Origin: Parvicella tangerina
GTDB taxonomy: Bacteria; Bacteroidota; Bacteroidia; Flavobacteriales_D; Parvicellaceae
DNA: 64,000 nucleotides
Direction: 5' to 3'
NCBI RefSeq assembly: GCF_907165195.1
Contig: NZ_OU015584.1
Span: 2,490,978 to 2,554,977, forward strand
Position 1 is the stretch's first letter, and each line of letters opens with the position of its first letter. A program made the position numbers and the translations under genes. Below, in pieces: positions 12,151 through 64,000 of this stretch. The notes beneath the pieces were generated by a model, which did no database searches, was not told the DNA's origin, and saw nothing but the letters and a program-made list of their open reading frames with translations.

Positions 12151-12631
12151 TTTTAGTCTACTCTTAGTTAATTGTAAAGAATCTCGAAATGACCATCCGT
12201 CCTCAAAACCTATATCAGGAGAAAACACTGAAGAAGACAACTATTATGAGTCTGATGACAATGGACTTCAAGATGAATTCGAAGCATTGATGAAAGAGAA
12301 GAACTTCTCATTTAAATGTGTTGACAATTGTGAAAATGGAGGCATTAGTGATGAGAATATTATCTATTTGGGGAAAGAGTTTTTTCAGGAACAAGTTGTT
12401 GTCAGTGACTCTAACATATATGTTCAATACCGGTTTATTGATGATTGTTGCATCATCTACGGTGGAGATTACACCTTAAATGGAGGTGTACTTTATTTGG
12501 AACATTATTCGTTGTTCCCTGAAGCTTGCGATTGTTATTGCGAATATGAGTATGCTTTTACAATTCCTAACAAAATAGGTTACCGAAACCTAAAGGTATT
12601 TATTAATGGAGCAGAAATCCAACAACAATGA
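12113..12631 (+). CDS. Putative lipoprotein, unknown function
   Basis: Encodes 172 aa from the ATG at 12113. MKHHPTKLVLFISFSLLLVNC is a lipoprotein signal ending at Cys21. The alternative ATG at 12107 adds only two residues. The mature part starts with an acidic linker and contains eight or more Cys residues (FKCVDNCENG, DDCCIIYG, EACDCYCEYEY), so disulfides or metal binding are possible. It overlaps the upstream gene by 38 bp and the downstream gene by 4 bp (ATGA). Family not recognised. Confidence 0.7.
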   Translation: MKHHPTKLVLFISFSLLLVNCKESRNDHPSSKPISGENTEEDNYYESDDNGLQDEFEALMKEKNFSFKCVDNCENGGISDENIIYLGKEFFQEQVVVSDSNIYVQYRFIDDCCIIYGGDYTLNGGVLYLEHYSLFPEACDCYCEYEYAFTIPNKIGYRNLKVFINGAEIQQQ

Positions 12632-13119
12632 ACTACAAAATCATACAACCTAAGGACTTTAAAACCTCTCACTGGTCCGGTGGAACAACTACTGAGTTAT
12701 ATATTTACCCTGAGGGTTCAGACTTTAAGTCGAGAGAATTTGACTTCAGACTAAGTATTGCTACCATCATCATCAATGAATCCGACTTCACACCTCTTCC
12801 TGGAGTTGACAGGACATTACTGTTATTAGAAGGCGAACTCGAACTGATCCACGAAGGACATCATAGCACTACACTAAAACCTTTAGAACAAGACAGTTTC
12901 AGCGGAAGCTGGCAAACCAAATGTATCGGAAAAGGGAAGGACTTTAATTTGATGACACAGAAATGCAATGGAACAATTAGTGTCGTTAAGAATGATACAG
13001 TGATCGAACCTGACTCAGAGCACACCTGTATTTATGCTTTGAATGGAGATGCTAGAGTCAATGGAATTAGTCTGAAGGAAGGAAGTTTGATGGTGGTTAA
13101 AAAGAGTAAAAAGGGATAA
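12628..13119 (+). CDS. HutD/Ves family cupin-like protein
   Basis: Encodes 163 aa. The WSGGTTTELYIYPEGSDF segment, the FRLSIATI strand and ESDFTPLPGVDRTLLLLEG are close to the HutD/Ves family, a bicupin-like fold. HutD is often near histidine utilisation genes and its role is regulatory or unknown; no hut genes occur here. It is shorter than some members at the C-terminus. Its start overlaps the upstream lipoprotein by 4 bp, and its end overlaps the degraded convergent gene by 23 bp. Confidence 0.8.
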   Translation: MNYKIIQPKDFKTSHWSGGTTTELYIYPEGSDFKSREFDFRLSIATIIINESDFTPLPGVDRTLLLLEGELELIHEGHHSTTLKPLEQDSFSGSWQTKCIGKGKDFNLMTQKCNGTISVVKNDTVIEPDSEHTCIYALNGDARVNGISLKEGSLMVVKKSKKG

Positions 13120-53950: not shown

Positions 53951-55021
53951 CTAGTATAAGAGGGTATCAATTTGGGTATCTGTAATCCTTATGGACATGC
54001 CAATAGGCGTTTCAAAAATTTTGGTAAAGTCAATGGCTGTCAAGTCCAGTTCCATGATTTCCCCATCCGGAGTGATTGTTGTTCTGCTTGTACCGCATTT
54101 ATCTTTTACCTGATCCTGAAATGATGGATCATCATGGGTTACATCATCAGGAATACCCAGGGAAGCACAGAAATCATCAACCGTAAATCCAGTGGGCATC
54201 TGAATTCTTGCATGATGAATATTCATCCCATACCTTTTGCTTTTAGCTTGCTTTAATTCAGTAAAATCACACCTTAACAACGTGGCATTTTCAAAACTAG
54301 TTTCAAAAACTGAACATCCTATCAATTCACAATCAACCAAATCAGCTTTAATAAAGTGAGAACCAGATAGATTTATCCCAGTGTAGACAACCTTCTTAAG
54401 CTGAGATGAATCAAAGTTCATTCCTTCTGAATAACCATTAAACTTCACTTTATGCAAATTGGCATGACTAAAGTTTGCCCCCTTAAAATTAACATTTGGA
54501 AAATCTTCATTTGCAATGTACACCCCACTTAAATTAGCTCTTGTCAGGTCGATTACTTCTCCCTTATGTCTTTTTTCGCATAGCTCAAAGTATTCCAGCA
54601 AAGCACTAGCTTTAAGTTTTGACAAATAGGTTGTCCGTCCCGGACGGAATAAAATTTCGATCAGCTCTGTCTCTCGCTGTGTATCAAATTGCTGCTCCTG
54701 AATATTTATTTGACGCTGAATAAGCTCGTTTTGTTCAACAATCTTAGCATTTTGCTGACTCATCAAACCTGTTTGAATAAATAAGGTGATGATGGTTGCA
54801 ATCGCTATCAGCGTACTTCCAATTGCAATTCCCGGTGATGAAAAGAAAAAATTATAGGCCAGTGCTAAAATAGCAGCACGTCTACGTCTATCCCCTTTTT
54901 CATACCGCTGGTAGTTCCTCAGCGAAGAAAAAAATCGGTGTTCTTGCTCAACCAACCTTGCCTCGAGTTCGAGAATCTTTTCTTCTAGTTCGGCTTTGTT
55001 TGATTCATTCTGATCGCTCAT
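53951..55021 (-). CDS. Membrane-anchored pentapeptide-repeat protein
   Basis: Encodes 356 aa. It begins with a coiled coil (about 8-40, ELEEKILELEARLVEQEH), followed by basic sequence, one or two hydrophobic segments (about 48-85), another coiled coil with QRQINIQEQQFDTQRE, and then pentapeptide repeats from about 155 to 260 (ANLSGVYIANEDF, VNFKGANFSHANLHKVKF, INLSGSHFIKADLVDCELIG). The remaining 90 residues are unique. Pentapeptide proteins form a right-handed beta-helix and often mimic DNA or bind proteins. It is 168 bp downstream of the defence operon, on the same strand; it may belong to it. Confidence 0.76.
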   Translation of the reverse strand: MSDQNESNKAELEEKILELEARLVEQEHRFFSSLRNYQRYEKGDRRRRAAILALAYNFFFSSPGIAIGSTLIAIATIITLFIQTGLMSQQNAKIVEQNELIQRQINIQEQQFDTQRETELIEILFRPGRTTYLSKLKASALLEYFELCEKRHKGEVIDLTRANLSGVYIANEDFPNVNFKGANFSHANLHKVKFNGYSEGMNFDSSQLKKVVYTGINLSGSHFIKADLVDCELIGCSVFETSFENATLLRCDFTELKQAKSKRYGMNIHHARIQMPTGFTVDDFCASLGIPDDVTHDDPSFQDQVKDKCGTSRTTITPDGEIMELDLTAIDFTKIFETPIGMSIRITDTQIDTLLY

Positions 55022-55189: not shown

Positions 55190-55915
55190 TCAATTCTTTC
55201 TCATTACGGGGTATTCCATACAAGTCTCACCATGCGAAGACTCGCCAGAAAAATGACAGAACTGTTCAGGATAATCATAATTATGATATTGAGCCCAGGC
55301 TTGATAAGCTTCAAGAGATAATGGTTTGGATATATTGAAAGGAATAGGCTTTCCTGTTCTGATGCAATAACCATAATGCTTCTTATCAAACTTTCTTTCT
55401 ACAAATCCTAATGCTTTTTCTGTATACTTCTTAGGATTAATACGTTCTGTAATGGTTTCTACTATTCCGTATTGTAAATCTTGAATTCTTCTTCGTTCTG
55501 ATCGCTTATAAATTCGTTCAATTTCAGCTTTTACCTTATTGTAGTTATCCTCGTCTTGCTTCACACCAAATAAAACCCCCATTTCGAAATTATGGTTAAT
55601 GCTAAACTCATGTAGGTTCATGGTGCTAATAATGGCTTCATCCTCATTAAGATAACACTTTGCATGCAAATTCTCAATATATCTAACTTCCAAGTTTCTG
55701 ATCTGAGAAAGCTTATTGACCTCTTGTTGTTTCAATTCGGCTTTACTATAGATCAAAACAATCCTTACCCCCTTTGAGGAAGCTTCTTTCAATCCGTCTA
55801 AATGCTCTTTACTGATATAATAGTAAGGACTTAGGATAAGCAATTCCTTATTCGCTTCCTCTATTACGTCAGTAATCTTTTGTACTAAACCTTTATTTCG
55901 TAGAAATTTTGCCAT
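55190..55915 (-). CDS. Phospholipase D-family protein with Cys-rich C-terminus
   Basis: Encodes 241 aa. The HKD-like motif is HAKCYLNEDEAIISTMN (His84, Lys86, Asp92, Asn100), with one more residue between Lys and Asp than the classic pattern. Only one HKD is present, so it should dimerise as single-HKD nucleases do. The last 60 residues have GYCIRTGKPIPFN and FCHFSGESSHGETC, a possible zinc-binding tail. Single-HKD proteins are nucleases or nickases in several defence systems. It is 2 bp after the preceding HNH gene, so it is part of the same operon. Confidence 0.8.
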   Translation of the reverse strand: MAKFLRNKGLVQKITDVIEEANKELLILSPYYYISKEHLDGLKEASSKGVRIVLIYSKAELKQQEVNKLSQIRNLEVRYIENLHAKCYLNEDEAIISTMNLHEFSINHNFEMGVLFGVKQDEDNYNKVKAEIERIYKRSERRRIQDLQYGIVETITERINPKKYTEKALGFVERKFDKKHYGYCIRTGKPIPFNISKPLSLEAYQAWAQYHNYDYPEQFCHFSGESSHGETCMEYPVMRKN

Positions 55916-55917
55916 TA

Positions 55918-56973
55918 TTACTTTTTCTTCAACTGCCTTACTAATTCCTGTGTAAAACTCAATTTCCTTGCATCTGGCATAGACAAGAACTCTTTTGGTA
56001 ACAATCCTATTTTATTCATACCCTTAATAACTTTAACCAAAGCTCTCAAGTCATCATCACTTCGAATTGAATTTATATTTCTCATTACTCTATTTGGCTT
56101 AGGAAAGAACACCCATCTTCCCTTCCTGAATAACCAAAAATTAAAGGAAACACCGAACCTATCATCATTATTTTTCAAAAAACGTATGTCATACATTTGA
56201 ATTCCTTTTCTTAACAAATCTACCTTAATTCCAAATATATCTCTTTCCTTCATCCATGAGTTAAATTCATCTATAGGGGTTAGTTTGTACTCATATGATT
56301 TGTATTCTGTAGAGATTTTATCACCTTCCTTCCTAATTCTAACTGGATCAACGCATAACTCTCTGTACATATGAGAATAATGTTCATAAATATCTAGATA
56401 ATAATCTTCATGAAATACTCTTTTGCAATCTTCAATAGTTGGTTGAGCCTTTAGGAATAGCGCTAAAAAATCTGTCTCATCATTAAGGAATTTAGAAAAA
56501 TGCTGGTCGAAATCAACTTGTTCTGGAAACTCTTTCCCTTTGCTATTTCGAGTACCTAAATGACTCTCAATTCGTTCCAACGACTCTAAGATTATCTGTA
56601 AAGAAGATTCTACAGATTTCATTTGTTTTTCACTGAGATCAAAAGCATTCGTAAATTGCCCTTCATGCTCTCTTTTCATTTGAAGAACTTTATCTGTATC
56701 ATACTCAAATTCATCATTATCTATTAACGAATGATGATTTCGACAAAGTACAATGAGGTTATCTTCCTTCCTTCTATCCTCATTGGTTAATTTATCATTA
56801 AACCGAGCTCCAGTTTCTTTTACTGCGGATATATGACATACTTCTGCTAGAAATGTATCAGCCTGAAATAAAGAATGTGAGCATCCTGGAAAAGCACATT
56901 GATTTCCTGTCTTAGAAAACAAAAACCGAATGGTTTCTTTAGTTGGCTCTAATCTTTTGGGTGTTTCAATCAT
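55918..56973 (-). CDS. HNH endonuclease-like protein
   Basis: Encodes 351 aa. The HNH core is near the N-terminus: QCAFPGC (Cys26, Cys31), EVCHIS (Cys46, His47), then RRKEDNLIVLCRNHHSLID (Asn72, Cys77, His80, His81), a zinc-bound HNH with all key residues. The remaining 260 residues have no recognised domain and may be a sensor or target-recognition part (FLKNNDDRFGVSFNFWLFRK). The spacing is 1 bp from the PtuB-like gene and 2 bp from the PLD gene. This second HNH is not homologous in layout to the first. Confidence 0.82.
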   Translation of the reverse strand: MIETPKRLEPTKETIRFLFSKTGNQCAFPGCSHSLFQADTFLAEVCHISAVKETGARFNDKLTNEDRRKEDNLIVLCRNHHSLIDNDEFEYDTDKVLQMKREHEGQFTNAFDLSEKQMKSVESSLQIILESLERIESHLGTRNSKGKEFPEQVDFDQHFSKFLNDETDFLALFLKAQPTIEDCKRVFHEDYYLDIYEHYSHMYRELCVDPVRIRKEGDKISTEYKSYEYKLTPIDEFNSWMKERDIFGIKVDLLRKGIQMYDIRFLKNNDDRFGVSFNFWLFRKGRWVFFPKPNRVMRNINSIRSDDDLRALVKVIKGMNKIGLLPKEFLSMPDARKLSFTQELVRQLKKK

Positions 56974-56974
56974 A

Positions 56975-58132
56975 CTAACTAAACTCTTTCAACACACTCG
57001 ATGCTATGTCTTTTGTCATTTTGGAGAATGGTCTCAATTTAAACTCTTCTTCCGTGAAATAGTTGCAAAAAACTAACCTATAGGCTTCAGATTCAGTCAA
57101 CCCTAATTTAGGAAATGTGTTTTGAATTGATTCAATGTACTTATCAGATGTCATATGTTTTTTTCTAACAATCTCAGCAACTTGATCAGCATGTTCGGAA
57201 TACACTTTTTGCAGCTCAAACAATTTTATATTCCCCTCGACCTTCTTTCTCAATAAATTATCATTCAATGGCCCATTATACTTAATTGATATGCTCATCT
57301 TTTCATTTTTCCCTATTGAGGCTTTGTAGTTCATTGGCCAGTACTCAAATACCATCAATTGGTGATTTTTATTCTCTTCGTAAGGAGATAAATGTGTATA
57401 ATAACTGACTTTTTGAGCATCTTTTAAATCTGAATTACACACATAACAAGAGGGGATTAAATTATAAAAAGATAATTGTAACCATGGCTCCTTACTTTGT
57501 GGAATAAAATGATCTAGCTGTGGTCTCGTCACATGCTTACTCCCAAACATTATTGTATTCGTATATACTCTGTTGCAGTAAGGGCAAGTTTTAAGATTTA
57601 ATAGCTTCGCTAACTTATATGGATTCCATCCTCCAGGTTTTCTATTATCTCGAAAATCTTCATATGAGAATATATATTTTCTAATTGGATTGAGAAGTTG
57701 AAGCTCTTTATTTAAGTATTCTAGATAAATCATCTTGCTACTATATGGTTTTGAAAACTTAAATTCTAATAAATCCCCAACCACAATATTTAATTCGTTA
57801 AGAGCTTTTTTTAGACTTTTAAAATCTCTGAGGTTGATCTGCCAATTTGAAACATTTCCAAGTAGAAAATATTGATTCTGTTTTTTTATCTTAACGGTGA
57901 GTACAGAGCTTAACAACATCCGTATTGTTGAATGTTTCAGATTATGACCAGTTTTAAGCCTTTTTATAACAGCCTCGTTTCTTTTCTCTATGAGATGAAT
58001 TTGGCTAATTTCATAAACTAAATCTATTATATCAGAATATACTGCAATCCTATTTCTAACAACCGTTGTCAGAGATTCGACATGCTTTTTTAGAGCCTTT
58101 TTATATTCTACGGTCTCCGCTAAACCAATCAT
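56975..58132 (-). CDS. PtuB-like HNH endonuclease
   Basis: Encodes 385 aa. A central HNH domain with two zinc-knuckle pairs: KTCPYCNRVY (Cys183, Cys186), QLDHFIPQS (Asp207, His208), FYNLIPSCYVCN (Asn224, Cys229, Cys232). This matches the HNH protein (PtuB) of Septu systems and of Septu-linked retrons, which cuts DNA or RNA after activation by an ATPase partner. The long helical N-terminus (1-170) is larger than in short PtuB forms. It overlaps the ATPase gene by 4 bp (ATGA), as in ptuAB pairs. Confidence 0.82.
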   Translation of the reverse strand: MIGLAETVEYKKALKKHVESLTTVVRNRIAVYSDIIDLVYEISQIHLIEKRNEAVIKRLKTGHNLKHSTIRMLLSSVLTVKIKKQNQYFLLGNVSNWQINLRDFKSLKKALNELNIVVGDLLEFKFSKPYSSKMIYLEYLNKELQLLNPIRKYIFSYEDFRDNRKPGGWNPYKLAKLLNLKTCPYCNRVYTNTIMFGSKHVTRPQLDHFIPQSKEPWLQLSFYNLIPSCYVCNSDLKDAQKVSYYTHLSPYEENKNHQLMVFEYWPMNYKASIGKNEKMSISIKYNGPLNDNLLRKKVEGNIKLFELQKVYSEHADQVAEIVRKKHMTSDKYIESIQNTFPKLGLTESEAYRLVFCNYFTEEEFKLRPFSKMTKDIASSVLKEFS

Positions 58133-61100
58133 GATTGTTGTTCCAGTTTTCTAATCTGCTCTTTGTAATAATCTATTTGCTTTTGCTTGTCAACTTGATC
58201 TGGAAAGATATAACCAAACATAGACAGCAATTTAGATTTTACTAGCTCATCTCCTATTAGACCAATTATTTGCTTTACATATGCCACTTCAGTGTCTGTA
58301 GCTTCCAATGGCTTGTCATCTTCCAGTAAGGATTTCCATTTTCCCATCAATTGAATCACCTTATTAATTTCTTTTTTCGAGAACTCACCAATATAGCCTG
58401 AAGAAAGAAAGAAGTCATTAGCTAGTAAATCATGGATATTTGCTCCAAAAGTTTCATGATTCTCAATATCTTTTGGTTTGCCCTTTTCCAACCTTAACAC
58501 AAAATCCTTAGGAATATCTGACAAAATGAACGGAGAGTGAGTAGCTAAACAAATGTTAATCGCATCTATTTCAGGTAGATTCACTCTTTTTATTGCTCGA
58601 AGTAGTTCTAATACATACTTCTGCTGCATTTCTGGATGGTAGTATAATTCAATTTCATCGAGAATTATATTAATAAAATTATAGTGAATCTTCTGTTTAC
58701 TTTCTATTACGGAATTCAAGTTTCTTAGATGATAAACGATTGAATTTGTTGAATAAATTATTTGTTTTTCACCAGAGCTCATGAACTTCATTGAACTTAC
58801 ATTTCCATTATCCAATTCTTTGACGAAAATCTCATATTTGTAAATTGGTGGTGGAATTAATTCTATTGGCTTGATGTTTTTTCCGATAAGATTTTCGAAT
58901 TCATGATTCTCAACACCCAAAAGTACTCCTAGCTCTTTTTCACGAGGCCAAACGTCTGGATACTTAAAATAATTGATGGTTTGATAAAACTTATCAGTAA
59001 TATGACTATGATATTCATATATCTCATTTAGAACCTTACTTAATCCATCATTATTGAAGTGAACTAATTCCTGGTTAAACCAGTCCTTATCTTCGTAATA
59101 ATTCAATGCAATTCTTATCACCTTTCTAATTAGGTAATTTCGTGCTAGGTTTAATATATCTGGGTCTGATATATTAGTTTCAATCACAGCAAATTTCGCA
59201 ACAATTTTATCCCATATCTCTTGCCTATGTATTTCCGTCAAACTGTCAAATGATACTTCCTTTCCTTCCTTATTATAAAAAAGTACCTTGTTTTTATCCT
59301 TGTTTAGTTTTAAGTGAATCGCTGAGGCTTTCTTGCCCTCTGTTAATAAATGATTCGAATCTTCAGGGTCTGTATTGGCTGGTTCTAATAAATTGGCTAC
59401 AAGTCTATCGAACGCTAGTTTATTTTCGATGTTAATATCAATTACCCCATTCTTTCTCATAGGGTTAATAACAATAGGAGTTTGATAACCATCATTCTTA
59501 TAAAATAATCCGTTGATCCATCCTCCTAATTCAATTTCATTTAATCCATAAATTGAATAATTTACGACTACGGAATAGAAGAACTCTCTCAAGTCTGCAT
59601 ACTTAAACTTTGTCTTACTGTTTTTTTTATGTAGCTTAAATTTATTTTTCCCACCTGACACAAAAGACTCTAAATAAATTGTACCTTCTTTTACTGTGAT
59701 CTTCTTTATTTTTCCGAATTGCATATAATATAACTCTGCGTACAATCCTTCCAGCATCCTTAAGTTCTTTGCGCCAAGTTTGTCTTTAAAGCCAAAAGCA
59801 ATATTATTCACGATTCCAAAAAACAACTCCAGTAACGTACTTTTCCCTGATCCATTTTTACCTACAATTGCTGTAATATTGATTGGCTTCCCTTCCTTAT
59901 CCGTATAAATTCGCCTATCATGTTCTGGAAAGTACTGTATGATTTCATTATTGACTTGAAAACATTGCTCAAAATGATAAACCGTACCATTTTCAACTTC
60001 AGGCTTCAACACTTTTAGTAACTTATCTTTAGATTTAAAGTGAGGTCTTATAGCTATAATTTTGAATGAGGTGCTTAAGTTTGAATCTTCTTTACTTTGC
60101 GATTCTATTACTTGGTTTTCTTTTTCAGCTTGAATAATTGATGATTCATCATTTGCTTTCTCAAACTGTGTATAATCTTCAGCAGGAAGGGAATATTTTA
60201 CAACTTCACGGTTTTCTGCAATTATCTCTTGTATTGCTTTAGAATAAACTACTACATTTTTCTTTTCAGCAATGAATTGATACGACACAAAAGTTAATTC
60301 TCTTAGAAGTCCTTTATGTCCATATAGGTGATCTTTCCGATAATCAGCAATATATTTTTGATAAGTCTTTTCTAATTTTCTTATTAATCCTTTGTAAGTA
60401 TTATAACTCTTTGGTTCTGATTCTATAACCCTTCGACTTACTAACAATGTTCTAACATTTTCATCTAGCGGTAGAAAGTTATCCGAATTAATGTAGTACA
60501 ATAACATTGTAAAAGAAGACATATTTATGCCATACCAGTCATGAAATATTGTATAGTTCTTATTATCTAGTCCTCTTACTCCACCTTCGCATAAACCAGA
60601 AAAAAAATTCCATATTGCAAATTGTTGAGCCTCTTCACGGGCAATCAGAATTTTAACGACATCTGGCGTAGGACATCCTGCAAAAACAATTTCCTTCTGA
60701 ATCTCATTTACTCCCAGCAAACGCAAGTATAAGTTCAATCTGTTTTTTCGTTTTTCGTAGGATAACTTAGATGCATTAATCGAAAAATAAACATGAGATG
60801 GATCTAAACTCCACACCCCATAAGATTCTGAGAATTTATTTATCCATGGATTCAACTCCTTGAAATCTTCATTTTGAATACAATTTTCATAAAATTGTCT
60901 ACCAGATTGCTCTTTGTGATTTTTATAAAATCTACTCAATCCTGAAGTCAATTCTTCAAAACATACATTCCAGTTTACGAAATGTCTCTCGTAGACATCA
61001 GTGTGCTGTTCGATTAATTCTTCAATCTTTTGCTGATCCCATATTTCAACAGTTGCTCTTCGAACATTCCTGACTCGACTTACGTAATCATCCTGGACTT

Positions 61101-61395
61101 TTGGCGATAATATACTAGGAACAATCACTATAAACCTATTTGGGTTTCTTTGACTATAAAATGAAGTCGTACGGCCAATTTCACTATTAAGTAGGTAAAA
61201 TTGATCTTGATCAAAACTCTTTAACTCAACAACGACCTTTAGTGATTCGCGTGAAGGACCATACCCTTGTTGAAGAACGTAGTCTTTAAAACTTGGTGCT
61301 TCGTCTAGGATTAATTTATACTTTCCAGAAGTATTTATTAAATCTGCTAAAAACTCTAGGAGTTTCCTTCGAGGGATATCTTTAAGGTAGTTCAT
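58129..61395 (-). CDS. PtuA-like SMC/ABC ATPase with nuclease-like N-terminus
   Basis: Encodes 1088 aa. Residues 1-145 look like a PD-(D/E)xK nuclease fold: Asp31, then VVVELKS (Glu57, Lys59), then strands FIVIVPSIL and ATVEIWD as in Mrr-like domains. Residues about 150-440 are unassigned. The ATPase follows: Walker A GKNGSGKST (512-520), ABC signature MSSGEKQ (870-876), Walker B INIILDE (907-912), H-loop His951 in LATHSPFILSDIP. The tail FGANIHDLLANDFF then GEFSKKEINKVI is typical of PtuA-like and related defence ATPases. It abuts the DUF3644 gene (0 bp) and overlaps the PtuB-like gene by 4 bp. Confidence 0.82.
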   Translation of the reverse strand: MNYLKDIPRRKLLEFLADLINTSGKYKLILDEAPSFKDYVLQQGYGPSRESLKVVVELKSFDQDQFYLLNSEIGRTTSFYSQRNPNRFIVIVPSILSPKVQDDYVSRVRNVRRATVEIWDQQKIEELIEQHTDVYERHFVNWNVCFEELTSGLSRFYKNHKEQSGRQFYENCIQNEDFKELNPWINKFSESYGVWSLDPSHVYFSINASKLSYEKRKNRLNLYLRLLGVNEIQKEIVFAGCPTPDVVKILIAREEAQQFAIWNFFSGLCEGGVRGLDNKNYTIFHDWYGINMSSFTMLLYYINSDNFLPLDENVRTLLVSRRVIESEPKSYNTYKGLIRKLEKTYQKYIADYRKDHLYGHKGLLRELTFVSYQFIAEKKNVVVYSKAIQEIIAENREVVKYSLPAEDYTQFEKANDESSIIQAEKENQVIESQSKEDSNLSTSFKIIAIRPHFKSKDKLLKVLKPEVENGTVYHFEQCFQVNNEIIQYFPEHDRRIYTDKEGKPINITAIVGKNGSGKSTLLELFFGIVNNIAFGFKDKLGAKNLRMLEGLYAELYYMQFGKIKKITVKEGTIYLESFVSGGKNKFKLHKKNSKTKFKYADLREFFYSVVVNYSIYGLNEIELGGWINGLFYKNDGYQTPIVINPMRKNGVIDINIENKLAFDRLVANLLEPANTDPEDSNHLLTEGKKASAIHLKLNKDKNKVLFYNKEGKEVSFDSLTEIHRQEIWDKIVAKFAVIETNISDPDILNLARNYLIRKVIRIALNYYEDKDWFNQELVHFNNDGLSKVLNEIYEYHSHITDKFYQTINYFKYPDVWPREKELGVLLGVENHEFENLIGKNIKPIELIPPPIYKYEIFVKELDNGNVSSMKFMSSGEKQIIYSTNSIVYHLRNLNSVIESKQKIHYNFINIILDEIELYYHPEMQQKYVLELLRAIKRVNLPEIDAINICLATHSPFILSDIPKDFVLRLEKGKPKDIENHETFGANIHDLLANDFFLSSGYIGEFSKKEINKVIQLMGKWKSLLEDDKPLEATDTEVAYVKQIIGLIGDELVKSKLLSMFGYIFPDQVDKQKQIDYYKEQIRKLEQQS

Positions 61396-62373
61396 TTACT
61401 TCTTCTTATACTGATTATCCAATTCCTTCCAAATATTCGTGTTATAAAATTGCTTTACTTGAGATTTTGGATTTTTAGGGTCTAGTTTTCTATTGTGACA
61501 CAATTTATCATTTGCCTTAACTTTTCTCATTACAGCGTGGAAGTTTGGATTCAATTTAAAATCAGAATATCTTTCTCTGCACATGTCTGTCACATCTTTA
61601 TAAGACAATGGAAATTTCTTAGTAATATCTTCTTCTGATAAACTAATTAACACTCCTTTTTCATCATATCTCATTCCTATACCAGCAAGAGTAGCCGTCT
61701 TCTTAAAACTAATATCGATTCCGATTGCCACATCGAAATTACGATCAGCCATATCTGCATCACTTACTTTCTTTTTAAGAAAGTTCAAATAGTTTTTTAC
61801 TTCATCAGTTAAGATTGCTTCAGACTCCACTTGTGAATCCACATATGCAAGAGGCATTAAGTAAAAATTATATTGAGACATGTCAATTCTTAGTTCCCAT
61901 TCTTTAATGAGATTCATGTAATTCTTGATACATGCAAAACCCAATTCCTGTATTTCTTTAGATATCTCATTTCCATTATGAAAATGAATTGCATTATCTC
62001 TTAGTTCCACTAGAGCTCTGATGCTATAACGCAAGTTCTCGTTTATAACATCTCCTTTATTTCTTAACCTAAGAATCGATTCTGGCAGGCCAATAGTCAT
62101 TGGATTGCCTGACCTGTTTAATTTTGGTGTAAACAATTTAGACTTGGTGCCATCCTTCTTTAATTTAGGTTCAAGTTGGTAAATGGATTTCATATTATAG
62201 CCTGATTTATTCAGTAACCTTGCCTTGAAAAGTAATTCCCAAGCGTTGATAGCTAATATTGAAAACGTTTCTTCACGATACTTAAAATCGGGCTTATTAT
62301 AGATTTCAATAGCAGACAGCATCGAACTTATCGATTTATCAAGTAAACTTTGATATGTCTTGTTAATTTTCAT
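61396..62373 (-). CDS. DUF3644 protein with HEPN-like R-x4-H motif
   Basis: Encodes 325 aa. The N-terminus matches DUF3644: KYREETFSILAINAWELLFKARLL. Residues 125-130 read RDNAIH, the R-x4-H signature of HEPN ribonucleases. A C-terminal segment after about 260 (DFKLNPNFHAVMRKVKAND and HNRKLDPKNPKSQVKQFYN) resembles a helix-turn-helix or RNA-binding module seen in the family. HEPN proteins are common toxins in defence systems, although the RNase role is not shown here. It abuts the ATPase gene without a gap and is next to the HsdS-like tail. Confidence 0.78.
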   Translation of the reverse strand: MKINKTYQSLLDKSISSMLSAIEIYNKPDFKYREETFSILAINAWELLFKARLLNKSGYNMKSIYQLEPKLKKDGTKSKLFTPKLNRSGNPMTIGLPESILRLRNKGDVINENLRYSIRALVELRDNAIHFHNGNEISKEIQELGFACIKNYMNLIKEWELRIDMSQYNFYLMPLAYVDSQVESEAILTDEVKNYLNFLKKKVSDADMADRNFDVAIGIDISFKKTATLAGIGMRYDEKGVLISLSEEDITKKFPLSYKDVTDMCRERYSDFKLNPNFHAVMRKVKANDKLCHNRKLDPKNPKSQVKQFYNTNIWKELDNQYKKK

Positions 62374-62463
62374 CTACTCCACCCTAACCTGCCCATTCAT
62401 CAACATCGGTAATAACCAATCCCGCAAACTGGAGAGGTGCTGGTTTTGTTTATTGTTATTCAT
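62374..62463 (-). pseudogene. 29-codon ORF resembling the C-terminus of HsdS
   Basis: On the minus strand an ATG at 62463, overlapping the helicase stop, opens MNNNKQNQHLSSLRDWLLPM followed by LMNGQVRVE and a stop at 62374, just before the DUF3644 start. The LRDWLLPMLMNGQV string is the characteristic last helix of many type I restriction specificity (HsdS) subunits. The rest of hsdS is absent. It is probably a relic of an hsdS gene, or a very small protein that keeps the tail. It fills the only gap in the operon. Confidence 0.6.
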
Positions 62464-64000
62464 GTAATACCCTTTCAAACTCACCAATTACTTTAAAATT
62501 CTTAAGTTCATCTTCCGTGAGTTCTATTGGTTTGTAATTATCGTCAGTAGACAATGGTTTCAAAACTATTTTAGCATGTTTCCAGCCATCCTCATTCTCA
62601 ACCTTAACACTTGTATATTCCTTAACGGTATACCCTGCTCCAAAGTCTGTATCATGTAGGTCGGCACTCTCTACTAGCACAATTTTTCCACTCCTACTTC
62701 CTCCGCCTGCTTTCTTGAACAAGCAAATAGAACCATTGGGAATGACTTTATTCATAGATTCTCCAATTACACGACAAGCAAACAACTGTTCCGAAGCTTG
62801 TACATGAGAAGGTACTTTAATCCAAGAAGACTCTTCCACTTTCTGCAAGTCACTAAAATCACCAGCTGCAGCCTGCAAATCATATAACGGCACACTATCT
62901 ACAAAAGGGTTGACTTGATCGTAATCATACAGCGGTATCACCTTTGTTTCTCTTTTGTAAGAGGCTATAACCTTTCTGAAATATTCTCGAAGGTTGTCAT
63001 CACATACATAAATATATGTTCCTCGAATACCTCTAAGCAAGATGGTTTTATAGATATTGATGATAAAATCTTTTAACTCTGCTGGATCTTTAATCGATTG
63101 CTTACCATTCTTATCGTAGTATTCTTTCTCTGAAATAATGATTTGATCGCTTTCCGGATCGTAACCAATCTCATTACCAAAAATGACACCTGTGTAATTT
63201 AGGTCATAGCCTTGTGTTGTGTGGATACAGCCTACTTCATTAATTGCATTTTCAGAGTTTACCCAATCTACAGCTATGCTATTCCATTGCAATCGAACTC
63301 CTTCAATTTCGATATCAAATTTTGATTTGTCTTTATTGGATACCCAAGGCCAAGAATAACCCGCAACTAGCCTAGATAATCCTACTTCATGATCACGTGC
63401 TTTGACTTCGCTAACCATATCTCGAAGTGAATCGAAAAGCACAAGTTCATAATCATTTGAACTAAACTTAGTGGGTCGTATCTCTTCAGAGCAACTCAAC
63501 AAATCACTAACGAAAGAGACATATCGATTCCCCCCTCTGACTCTGAATTGAGATTTCAATTTCTCTACTCTAGTGGAATTTGATTGCTTGAGAATATCGA
63601 AAGACTCTTTTAGAGCATCAGAGGGTTTGATGGATTGGTTCTCATCGTAAAACAAAACTGCCTTTTTCGATTGAATGTTCACCCAATCCAATTCACTACA
63701 TTTGGATTTATCCAACCCTAATTTCTCACACGCTTTATCAAAAGCTCCATAGTATGCGCCCAGATTAACCCTCCTTCTTAATCGGTGAGATTCATCAACT
63801 ATTACAATGTCGAATTTTTCTTTAGCTACCTCTGCTGGGCCAATAACCATTTTAGTCGTGAGCCCTTTGATATTTTTAAAGACTTTTTTCAAGGTCTTTC
63901 TGAACGATGCCATCGGAACAACAAGCGCCATCCTTGGATTAGGATATTGTTCTTTTAGCTTTCTGATCAATACTACCAACTCAGATTCCTCGATTCCAAA
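62456..64000 (-). CDS. DUF2075 helicase fused to LexA/S24-like peptidase (5' end outside window)
   Basis: Open to the window edge (the first visible codons read FGIEESE), so the N-terminus with Walker A is missing. Visible helicase parts: VIVDESHRL (Walker B), SQFRVRGGNRYV, EVGCIHTTQGYDLNYTGVIF and ILLRGIRGTYIYV, typical of DUF2075 superfamily 1 enzymes. The last 140 residues are S24-like. Counting from the codon at 63979, there is a possible cleavage site AAAG (370-373), Ser408 in RVIGESMNKVIPNGS, and Lys453 in GYTVKEYT, which match the Ser/Lys dyad of LexA and UmuD. The layout suggests a helicase that may self-cleave. It is the first visible gene of the operon. Confidence 0.83.
   Translation of the reverse strand, partial: FGIEESELVVLIRKLKEQYPNPRMALVVPMASFRKTLKKVFKNIKGLTTKMVIGPAEVAKEKFDIVIVDESHRLRRRVNLGAYYGAFDKACEKLGLDKSKCSELDWVNIQSKKAVLFYDENQSIKPSDALKESFDILKQSNSTRVEKLKSQFRVRGGNRYVSFVSDLLSCSEEIRPTKFSSNDYELVLFDSLRDMVSEVKARDHEVGLSRLVAGYSWPWVSNKDKSKFDIEIEGVRLQWNSIAVDWVNSENAINEVGCIHTTQGYDLNYTGVIFGNEIGYDPESDQIIISEKEYYDKNGKQSIKDPAELKDFIINIYKTILLRGIRGTYIYVCDDNLREYFRKVIASYKRETKVIPLYDYDQVNPFVDSVPLYDLQAAAGDFSDLQKVEESSWIKVPSHVQASEQLFACRVIGESMNKVIPNGSICLFKKAGGGSRSGKIVLVESADLHDTDFGAGYTVKEYTSVKVENEDGWKHAKIVLKPLSTDDNYKPIELTEDELKNFKVIGEFERVLHE

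What the first reader, a model, noticed from the sequence alone, without database searches (positions are those of the whole stretch)
58129..61395. ATPase carries a PD-(D/E)xK-like domain and a 290-aa unassigned middle
Seen: D31, E57-x-K59 with the surrounding strand pattern N-terminal to a complete ABC/SMC ATPase (Walker A, signature, Walker B, H-loop). Known PtuA proteins are mostly just the ATPase, about 500-600 aa. Inference: this is a long PtuA variant that could itself cut DNA, with the HNH partner as a second nuclease.
Basis: partly seen in the sequence, partly recalled or inferred. Interest (0 to 1): 0.72.

Follow-up and report, generated by a model that had tools for sequence, protein, structure and literature searches.

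The report
Septu-like ATPase with two DNA domains
This bacterial gene pair resembles the Septu anti-phage system, but its motor protein carries a DNA-cutting-type domain and, behind it, a domain folded like a DNA-repair base-flipper that is also found on McrB restriction enzymes, suggesting that the pair is switched on by unusual bases in invading DNA.

Summary
In detail: 58129-61395 (-) encodes a 1088-aa ATPase followed, with a 4-nt overlap, by an HNH protein. The pair matches PADLOC candidate PDC-M62 (A 6.5e-44, B 2.5e-77), which one survey equates with Septu.

Residues 1-138 are a divergent Mrr-type PD-(D/E)xK domain. hhalign (97%, 7e-11) aligns E57-x-K59 with the Q-x-K of Mrr_cat domains on nSTAND3 ATPases. 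An AlphaFold model (pLDDT 62, two sequences) is closest to Avs4's N-terminus and restriction nucleases. D31/E57/K59 are kept in the only other carrier found (L065, 49% identical), but D31 is not at the usual Asp position, so cleavage is unproven.

The 'unassigned' middle is the larger find. It occurs in 25 of the 80 best homologous loci, mostly without the nuclease, and at the N-terminus of McrB-type GTPases (6 of 6 hits outside M62). Its model (pLDDT 88) matches HhH-GPD DNA glycosylases almost exclusively, and D311 aligns with their catalytic Asp. Each fold match is weak alone; sequence homology is below standard detection.

Best reading: a base-flipping DNA reader controls an ATPase-HNH effector, with an accessory nuclease in rare members. 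New variant of a known kind; mechanism inferred.

The parts
58129..61395 (-). PDC-M62A / PtuA-like ATPase, 1088 aa
   Evidence: ORF; PADLOC PDC-M62A 6.5e-44 over aa 505-1085, PtuA models 1e-14 partial
60982..61395 (-). Residues 1-138: divergent Mrr-type PD-(D/E)xK domain
   Evidence: hhalign 97%, E 7.1e-11, to N-terminal domains of nSTAND3 proteins whose N-termini match Pfam Mrr_cat above cut-off; AF2 model a-bbb-a-b-a-b; VIA top hits Avs4 N-terminus Z 8.1, FokI, EcoT38I, MspJI
61303..61305 (-). D31, candidate acidic ligand (uncertain)
   Evidence: Conserved in L065; not at the Asp position of Mrr relatives
61219..61227 (-). E57-x-K59 of the nuclease motif
   Evidence: Conserved in L065; aligned with Q-x-K of Mrr-type relatives
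60361..60972 (-). Residues 142-345: HhH-GPD (DNA glycosylase)-like domain shared with McrB N-termini
   Evidence: AF2 pLDDT 88; Foldseek and VIA hit lists almost only HhH-GPD glycosylases; profile hits six McrB-type proteins, E 1e-19 to 4e-9; D311 diagonal ranked first
60457..60465 (-). D311-x-N313, aligned with the catalytic Asp (and MutY Asn) of HhH-GPD glycosylases
   Evidence: D311 in 25/26 and N313 in 23/26 members
60076..60360 (-). Residues 346-440: helices then low-confidence linker
   Evidence: AF2 per-residue confidence
58345..60075 (-). Residues 441-1017: ABC/SMC-type ATPase core
   Evidence: Pfam AAA_21/AAA_15; conserved Walker A, signature, Walker B, H-loop
59836..59862 (-). Walker A GKNGSGKST
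58762..58779 (-). ABC signature SSGEKQ
58648..58665 (-). Walker B ILDEIE
58531..58545 (-). H-loop ATHSP
56975..58132 (-). HNH partner, PDC-M62B (PtuB-like), 385 aa, with CPYC / LDH / CYVCN motifs
   Evidence: PADLOC PDC-M62B 2.5e-77; Pfam HNH 2.2e-4; a homologue lies directly downstream in 24 of 25 middle-domain loci

Best explanation
This is a two-gene Septu-like defence system (PDC-M62). Its ATPase carries in front (i) a HhH-GPD-like, base-flipping DNA-reading domain of the kind also placed in front of McrB GTPases and (ii), in this genome and one other found, an Mrr-type PD-(D/E)xK nuclease domain. Proposed working: the HhH-GPD-like domain scans DNA and binds flipped-out modified or damaged bases in incoming phage DNA; binding changes the ATP-dependent dimer state of the ABC/SMC ATPase; this releases or positions the HNH partner, and in this variant also the fused PD-(D/E)xK domain, to cut nucleic acid. 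Shown by computation: gene order, domain content, domain sharing with McrB, motif conservation. Inferred: ligand, the order of events, whether the nuclease domain cuts, and whether the HNH cuts DNA or, as in studied E. coli Septu, tRNA.
For: M62A/M62B matches. HNH directly downstream in 24/25 loci. Middle domain conserved in 26 proteins and in six McrB-type proteins, including EVE-bearing ones, i.e. next to known modified-base readers (PMC7641849). HhH-GPD fold: nearly all of the top ~40 Foldseek hits (OGG1, MjOgg, MutY, MagIII, AlkA, EndoIII) and all top VIA hits (best Z 5.5, 153 residues) are of this superfamily. Helix-hairpin-helix then Asp at the same spacing as MutY/EndoIII, and the pre-stated Asp-on-Asp diagonal ranked 1st of 563, 425 and 555. 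N-terminal nuclease. It is the most conserved part between window and L065 (48.6%, against 46.5% ATPase and 42.6% middle). Both Walker and HNH motifs are needed for defence in E. coli Septu (PMC13096335).
Against: HhH-GPD homology is not detectable by hhalign (probability under 1%), Pfam or a PDB profile search. Single fold scores are weak (Foldseek E 0.04, Z 5.5), within the range where Z may mean only a common arrangement. In one search the absolute score does not exceed the shuffled maximum. The N-terminal model has pLDDT 62 from two sequences and the catalytic Asp is unplaced. No functional data exist for this pair. The HhH lysine is absent and the Asp is Asn in three of six McrB relatives, so a pure binding role cannot be told from catalysis.
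Confidence: 0.5

Rival explanations
1. One reading: a long PtuA whose PD-(D/E)xK domain is the main new activity, so that two nucleases (PD-(D/E)xK and HNH) cut DNA, the middle being only a spacer or dimerisation region.
For: Nuclease-fold and E-x-K evidence; N-terminus strongly conserved with L065.
Against: The middle is the widely conserved part with its own invariant residues and occurs in McrB proteins; the nuclease is present in only 2 of 26 and its Asp is displaced.
Confidence: 0.15
2. The middle domain is an active DNA glycosylase: it removes modified bases from phage DNA and the nuclease parts cut at the abasic sites.
For: Asp at the catalytic position in 25/26 and D-x-N as in MutY; stand-alone glycosylases do defend against T-even phages (PMC11078745, PMC13160076), though these belong to the uracil-glycosylase superfamily.
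Against: No helix-hairpin-helix lysine; Asp to Asn in three McrB-side relatives; no activity data.
Confidence: 0.15
3. The N-terminal domain is a dead PD-(D/E)xK fold that only binds DNA or a partner, as in RPB5 (this can be true together with the best explanation).
For: Canonical Mrr Asp missing; RPB5 chains, which are not nucleases, match at Z 5.3-6.6.
Against: E57 and K59 both conserved in L065 and aligned with the Q-x-K of relatives.
Confidence: 0.35
4. The middle is an unrelated helical DNA-binding domain whose resemblance to HhH-GPD is a common helical arrangement.
For: Weak single scores and no profile-level homology.
Against: The hit list is nearly pure for one superfamily and spans several of its families; the motif was predicted from sequence before the fold search and the Asp diagonal ranked first.
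Confidence: 0.2

Closest known systems
PDC-M62 (PADLOC candidate system M62A + M62B)
   Same: Same ATPase core and HNH partner in adjacent genes
   Different: The matched PADLOC M62A models are 597-746 aa and match this protein only from residue 498 on; neither front domain is covered
Septu (PtuA/PtuB), retron Ec78 PtuAB
   Same: ABC/SMC ATPase plus HNH nuclease
   Different: PtuA models are about 290-545 aa without front domains; NCBIfam PtuA scores 39.5 against a cut-off of 500
Avs4 and nSTAND3 proteins with an N-terminal Mrr nuclease (PADLOC PDC-S73)
   Same: N-terminal Mrr-type PD-(D/E)xK module on an ATPase
   Different: STAND NTPase rather than ABC/SMC; Asp position intact in PDC-S73 proteins
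McrB-type GTPases of type IV restriction, with or without EVE
   Same: Share the middle domain at the N-terminus
   Different: AAA+ (AAA_5) motor instead of an ABC/SMC ATPase, and McrC rather than HNH partner in known systems
HhH-GPD DNA glycosylases (MutY, OGG1, EndoIII, MagIII)
   Same: Predicted fold, hairpin-to-Asp spacing
   Different: No Lys, no sequence-level homology by standard search, fused to an ATPase

Membership tests
PDC-M62 | M62A and M62B matches in adjacent genes | tested here: met
   6.5e-44 and 2.5e-77, genes overlap by 4 nt
Septu (PtuA) | Above NCBIfam PtuA cut-off (500 bits) | tested here: not met
   39.5 bits
Septu (PtuAB) | ABC ATPase with Walker A/B plus HNH partner | tested here: met
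Septu (PtuAB) | Anti-phage activity | not testable with these tools
   No experiment possible
Mrr-type PD-(D/E)xK nuclease | PD-(D/E)xK core topology | tested here: met
   AF2 order a-bbb-a-b-a-b, low confidence; VIA neighbours
Mrr-type PD-(D/E)xK nuclease | (E/Q)-x-K on the third strand | tested here: met
   E57-L-K59 aligned with Q-x-K, conserved in L065
Mrr-type PD-(D/E)xK nuclease | Asp about 13 residues before (E/Q)xK, as in the nSTAND3 relatives | tested here: not met
   Position holds G44; the only conserved acid before E57 is D31, 26 residues before
Mrr-type PD-(D/E)xK nuclease | Match to Pfam Mrr_cat | tested here: not met
   No match up to E 10; linked only through nSTAND3 relatives
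HhH-GPD superfamily | Fold | tested here: inconclusive
   Consistent but individually weak matches
HhH-GPD superfamily | Pfam HhH-GPD match | tested here: not met
   None of 26 members
HhH-GPD superfamily | Hairpin followed by catalytic Asp at fixed spacing | tested here: met
   S293/D311 spacing 18; diagonal rank 1
McrB type IV restriction | AAA_5 GTPase motor | tested here: not met
   Motor is ABC/SMC type; only the N-terminal domain is shared

The most novel reading that the evidence does not exclude
The HhH-GPD-like domain is a base-excising or base-sensing trigger: a Septu-like ATPase-nuclease is activated by, or cuts at, modified or glycosylase-processed bases in phage DNA, and the same trigger is used by a large class of McrB systems.
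Probability: 0.25. Interest if true: 0.82.

Novelty: new variant of a known kind. Interest (0 to 1): 0.62.

Why it matters
What switches Septu-type ATPases on is, to my knowledge, largely unknown. A domain with a known kind of ligand (a flipped DNA base), fused to the ATPase and shared with modification-dependent McrB enzymes, makes the trigger directly testable with phages that carry or lack modified bases. It would also give an N-terminal domain of McrB proteins that has no Pfam model a fold and a role, and show Mrr-type nuclease modules moving from STAND immune proteins onto Septu-like ATPases.

Tried and rejected
Single-sequence scans of genome contigs and viral contigs found nothing; the alignment scan worked. 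The N-terminal domain was not found in viral contigs or in other Bacteroidota genomes (247; 295, where the only other hit was partial and marginal, E 0.009). Middle domain: no match in plasmids or phages. Pfam and PDB sequence searches of both front domains gave only chance matches. hhalign of the middle with Nth/MutY alignments failed; only the pre-specified diagonal test was positive. BFVD gave no clear fold match for the middle. D38 was considered as the catalytic Asp because it lies near the start of strand 2, and set aside because L065 has Arg there. The N-terminal extension of L081 (about 117 aa) showed no similarity to the window's nuclease domain by BLAST. No paper found describes HhH-GPD domains in Septu or McrB; the library lacks most subscription journals. 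Three calls returned errors from wrong frames or handles.
Full report
What is there. The minus-strand ORF 58129-61395 encodes 1088 aa and begins directly at the end of an upstream DUF3644 gene (61396-62373). Its stop overlaps the start of an HNH gene (56975-58132) by four bases. Walker A (512-520), ABC signature (873-878), Walker B (911-916) and H-loop (951-955) are all present and conserved in homologues. PADLOC assigns the pair to PDC-M62 (A 6.5e-44, B 2.5e-77); PtuA/PtuB models match more weakly and in part, and NCBIfam's PtuA model scores 39.5 against a cut-off of 500. A survey of Bacillus cereus genomes found PDC-M62 calls that coincide with Septu calls (203 pairs; PMC11811056). So the pair itself is a known candidate kind.

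Three lengths of one ATPase. Homologues fall into short forms (about 590-820 aa, ATPase only), medium forms (about 870-980 aa, beginning at window residue W142) and long forms. Of the 80 best genome-contig loci, 25 have the middle domain. Only L065 (Flavobacteriales MAG OFTM342, 1094 aa) has the window's N-terminal domain as well; L081 (Sulfurimonas MAG) has an unrelated-looking extension. The list is biased to the window's own architecture because it is ranked by similarity to it. The N-terminal domain was not found in viral contigs or in several hundred other Bacteroidota genomes.

N-terminal domain (1-138). The bare D...ExK motif is expected by chance (59% of shuffles). Real evidence: window and L065 both match, by tblastn at E 0.004-0.006, the N-terminus of a Rhizobium gallicum protein. 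That protein and two further relatives found consist of Pfam Mrr_cat plus nSTAND3 (PADLOC PDC-S73). Profile comparison gives 97% and 7e-11 over residues 48-143 and puts E57-x-K59 on Q-x-K. The AlphaFold model (two sequences, pLDDT 62) has the a-bbb-a-b-a-b order. Its closest structures are the N-terminus of Avs4 (Z 8.1, 3.9 A, 135 residues) and restriction nucleases (FokI, EcoT38I, BspD6I, MspJI), mixed with RPB5 and a viral RNA polymerase subunit at similar Z; Foldseek alone gave no significant hit. Between window and L065 this domain is the most conserved part (48.6% with no gaps), so it is probably under selection. Weak point: in the Mrr relatives the Asp stands 13 residues before QxK, whereas here that place is Gly. 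D31 is the only acid before E57 conserved in both carriers, 26 residues upstream, in a low-confidence loop. Cleavage is therefore plausible, not shown.

Middle domain (142-345). It is absent from Pfam but has strongly conserved residues in 26 proteins: W142, D198-P199, P242, R253, W262, G289, T296, L299, and D311 in 25/26. From the motif W-x-G-I...S-F-T...F-L-P-L-D-x-N I noted a resemblance to MutY's helix-hairpin-helix and catalytic Asp before any fold result. AlphaFold with 26 sequences gave pLDDT 88. Foldseek against the PDB then returned HhH-GPD glycosylases in all of its first 41 rows (OGG1, MjOgg, MutY, MagIII, AlkA-type, EndoIII; best E 0.04), and the top VIA rows are of the same superfamily (best Z 5.5, 4.6 A, 153 residues). 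Each single score is weak; the purity of the list and the prior prediction give it weight. Standard profile comparison fails. A pre-specified ungapped test, with D311 placed on the catalytic Asp of Bacteroidota MutY and Nth, ranked that diagonal first of 563, 425 and 555, although the score itself does not exceed the maximum from shuffled columns. I call this HhH-GPD-like: probable, not proven.

The same domain in McrB. A profile of the middle domain found six other proteins in 247 Bacteroidota genomes (E 1e-19 to 4e-9). They look McrB-type by their GPPGTGKTY / FITFHQNYSYEDFI motifs (the sixth, L198, only by a shorter stretch), and some have an EVE domain. EVE domains are readers of modified bases, and EVE-McrB is the commonest defence fusion of EVE (PMC7641849). 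In three of six McrB-side sequences compared the Asp is Asn, which speaks for a reading rather than an excising role on that side; in the M62A proteins it is nearly invariant.

Context. The HNH gene follows directly in 24 of 25 middle-domain loci, and six of these loci hold type I R-M-like genes; L065 has a whole HsdR-M-S-like operon in front. The window stretch from about 55 to 62 kb has GC about 0.32-0.33 against mostly 0.36-0.43 in the 30 kb before it and carries several other defence-type genes, so it looks like an acquired defence island.

How it probably works. In E. coli Septu both Walker and HNH residues are needed for defence, and the system cleaves tRNA-Tyr (PMC13096335; see also PMC11555353, abstract). 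I propose that in the M62 medium and long forms the HhH-GPD-like domain supplies the trigger: it scans DNA and holds a flipped modified or damaged base, the ATPase changes state, and the HNH partner acts. In this genome and L065 a Mrr-type nuclease has been added at the front, presumably to cut the recognised DNA itself. Steps shown: domains, their order, conservation, sharing with McrB. Steps inferred: ligand, switching, cleavage, and the nature of the HNH substrate.

Verdict. The novelty lies elsewhere: the middle domain links Septu-like ATPases to modification-dependent McrB systems and to the DNA-glycosylase fold. No paper describing this was found in the library, which lacks most subscription journals.

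Noticed in passing
61396-62373 (-): DUF3644 protein, PADLOC PDC-S19 (4.5e-128), ends with no gap before the ATPase start; probably the same transcript.
   Followed up: partly
62456-64000 (-): SLFN group 3 helicase domain with a C-terminal S24 (LexA-type) peptidase domain, running past the window end.
   Followed up: no
55918-56973 (-): HNH_2 protein whose first 130 aa match PDC-M68A, CBASS HNH effectors and SduA models.
   Followed up: no
55190-55915 (-): PLD-family nuclease (DrmC-like); a homologue (7e-38) lies near another middle-domain M62 pair in L069 at about 13395.
   Followed up: partly
53951-55021 (-): Pentapeptide-repeat protein with a likely transmembrane stretch next to the defence genes.
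   Followed up: no
L081:664-8363: In a Sulfurimonas MAG the M62 pair sits between genes that look like sbcD and sbcC (read from sequence only).
   Followed up: no
L065:7187-7921 and 12347-12937: Two further small ORFs with E-x-K motifs (IEFKHK, IEVKSA) flank the pair inside a type I R-M locus; no significant Pfam match.
   Followed up: no
L193, L194, L195, L196, L197, L198: McrB-type proteins whose N-terminal domain is homologous to the middle domain and has no Pfam model.
   Followed up: yes
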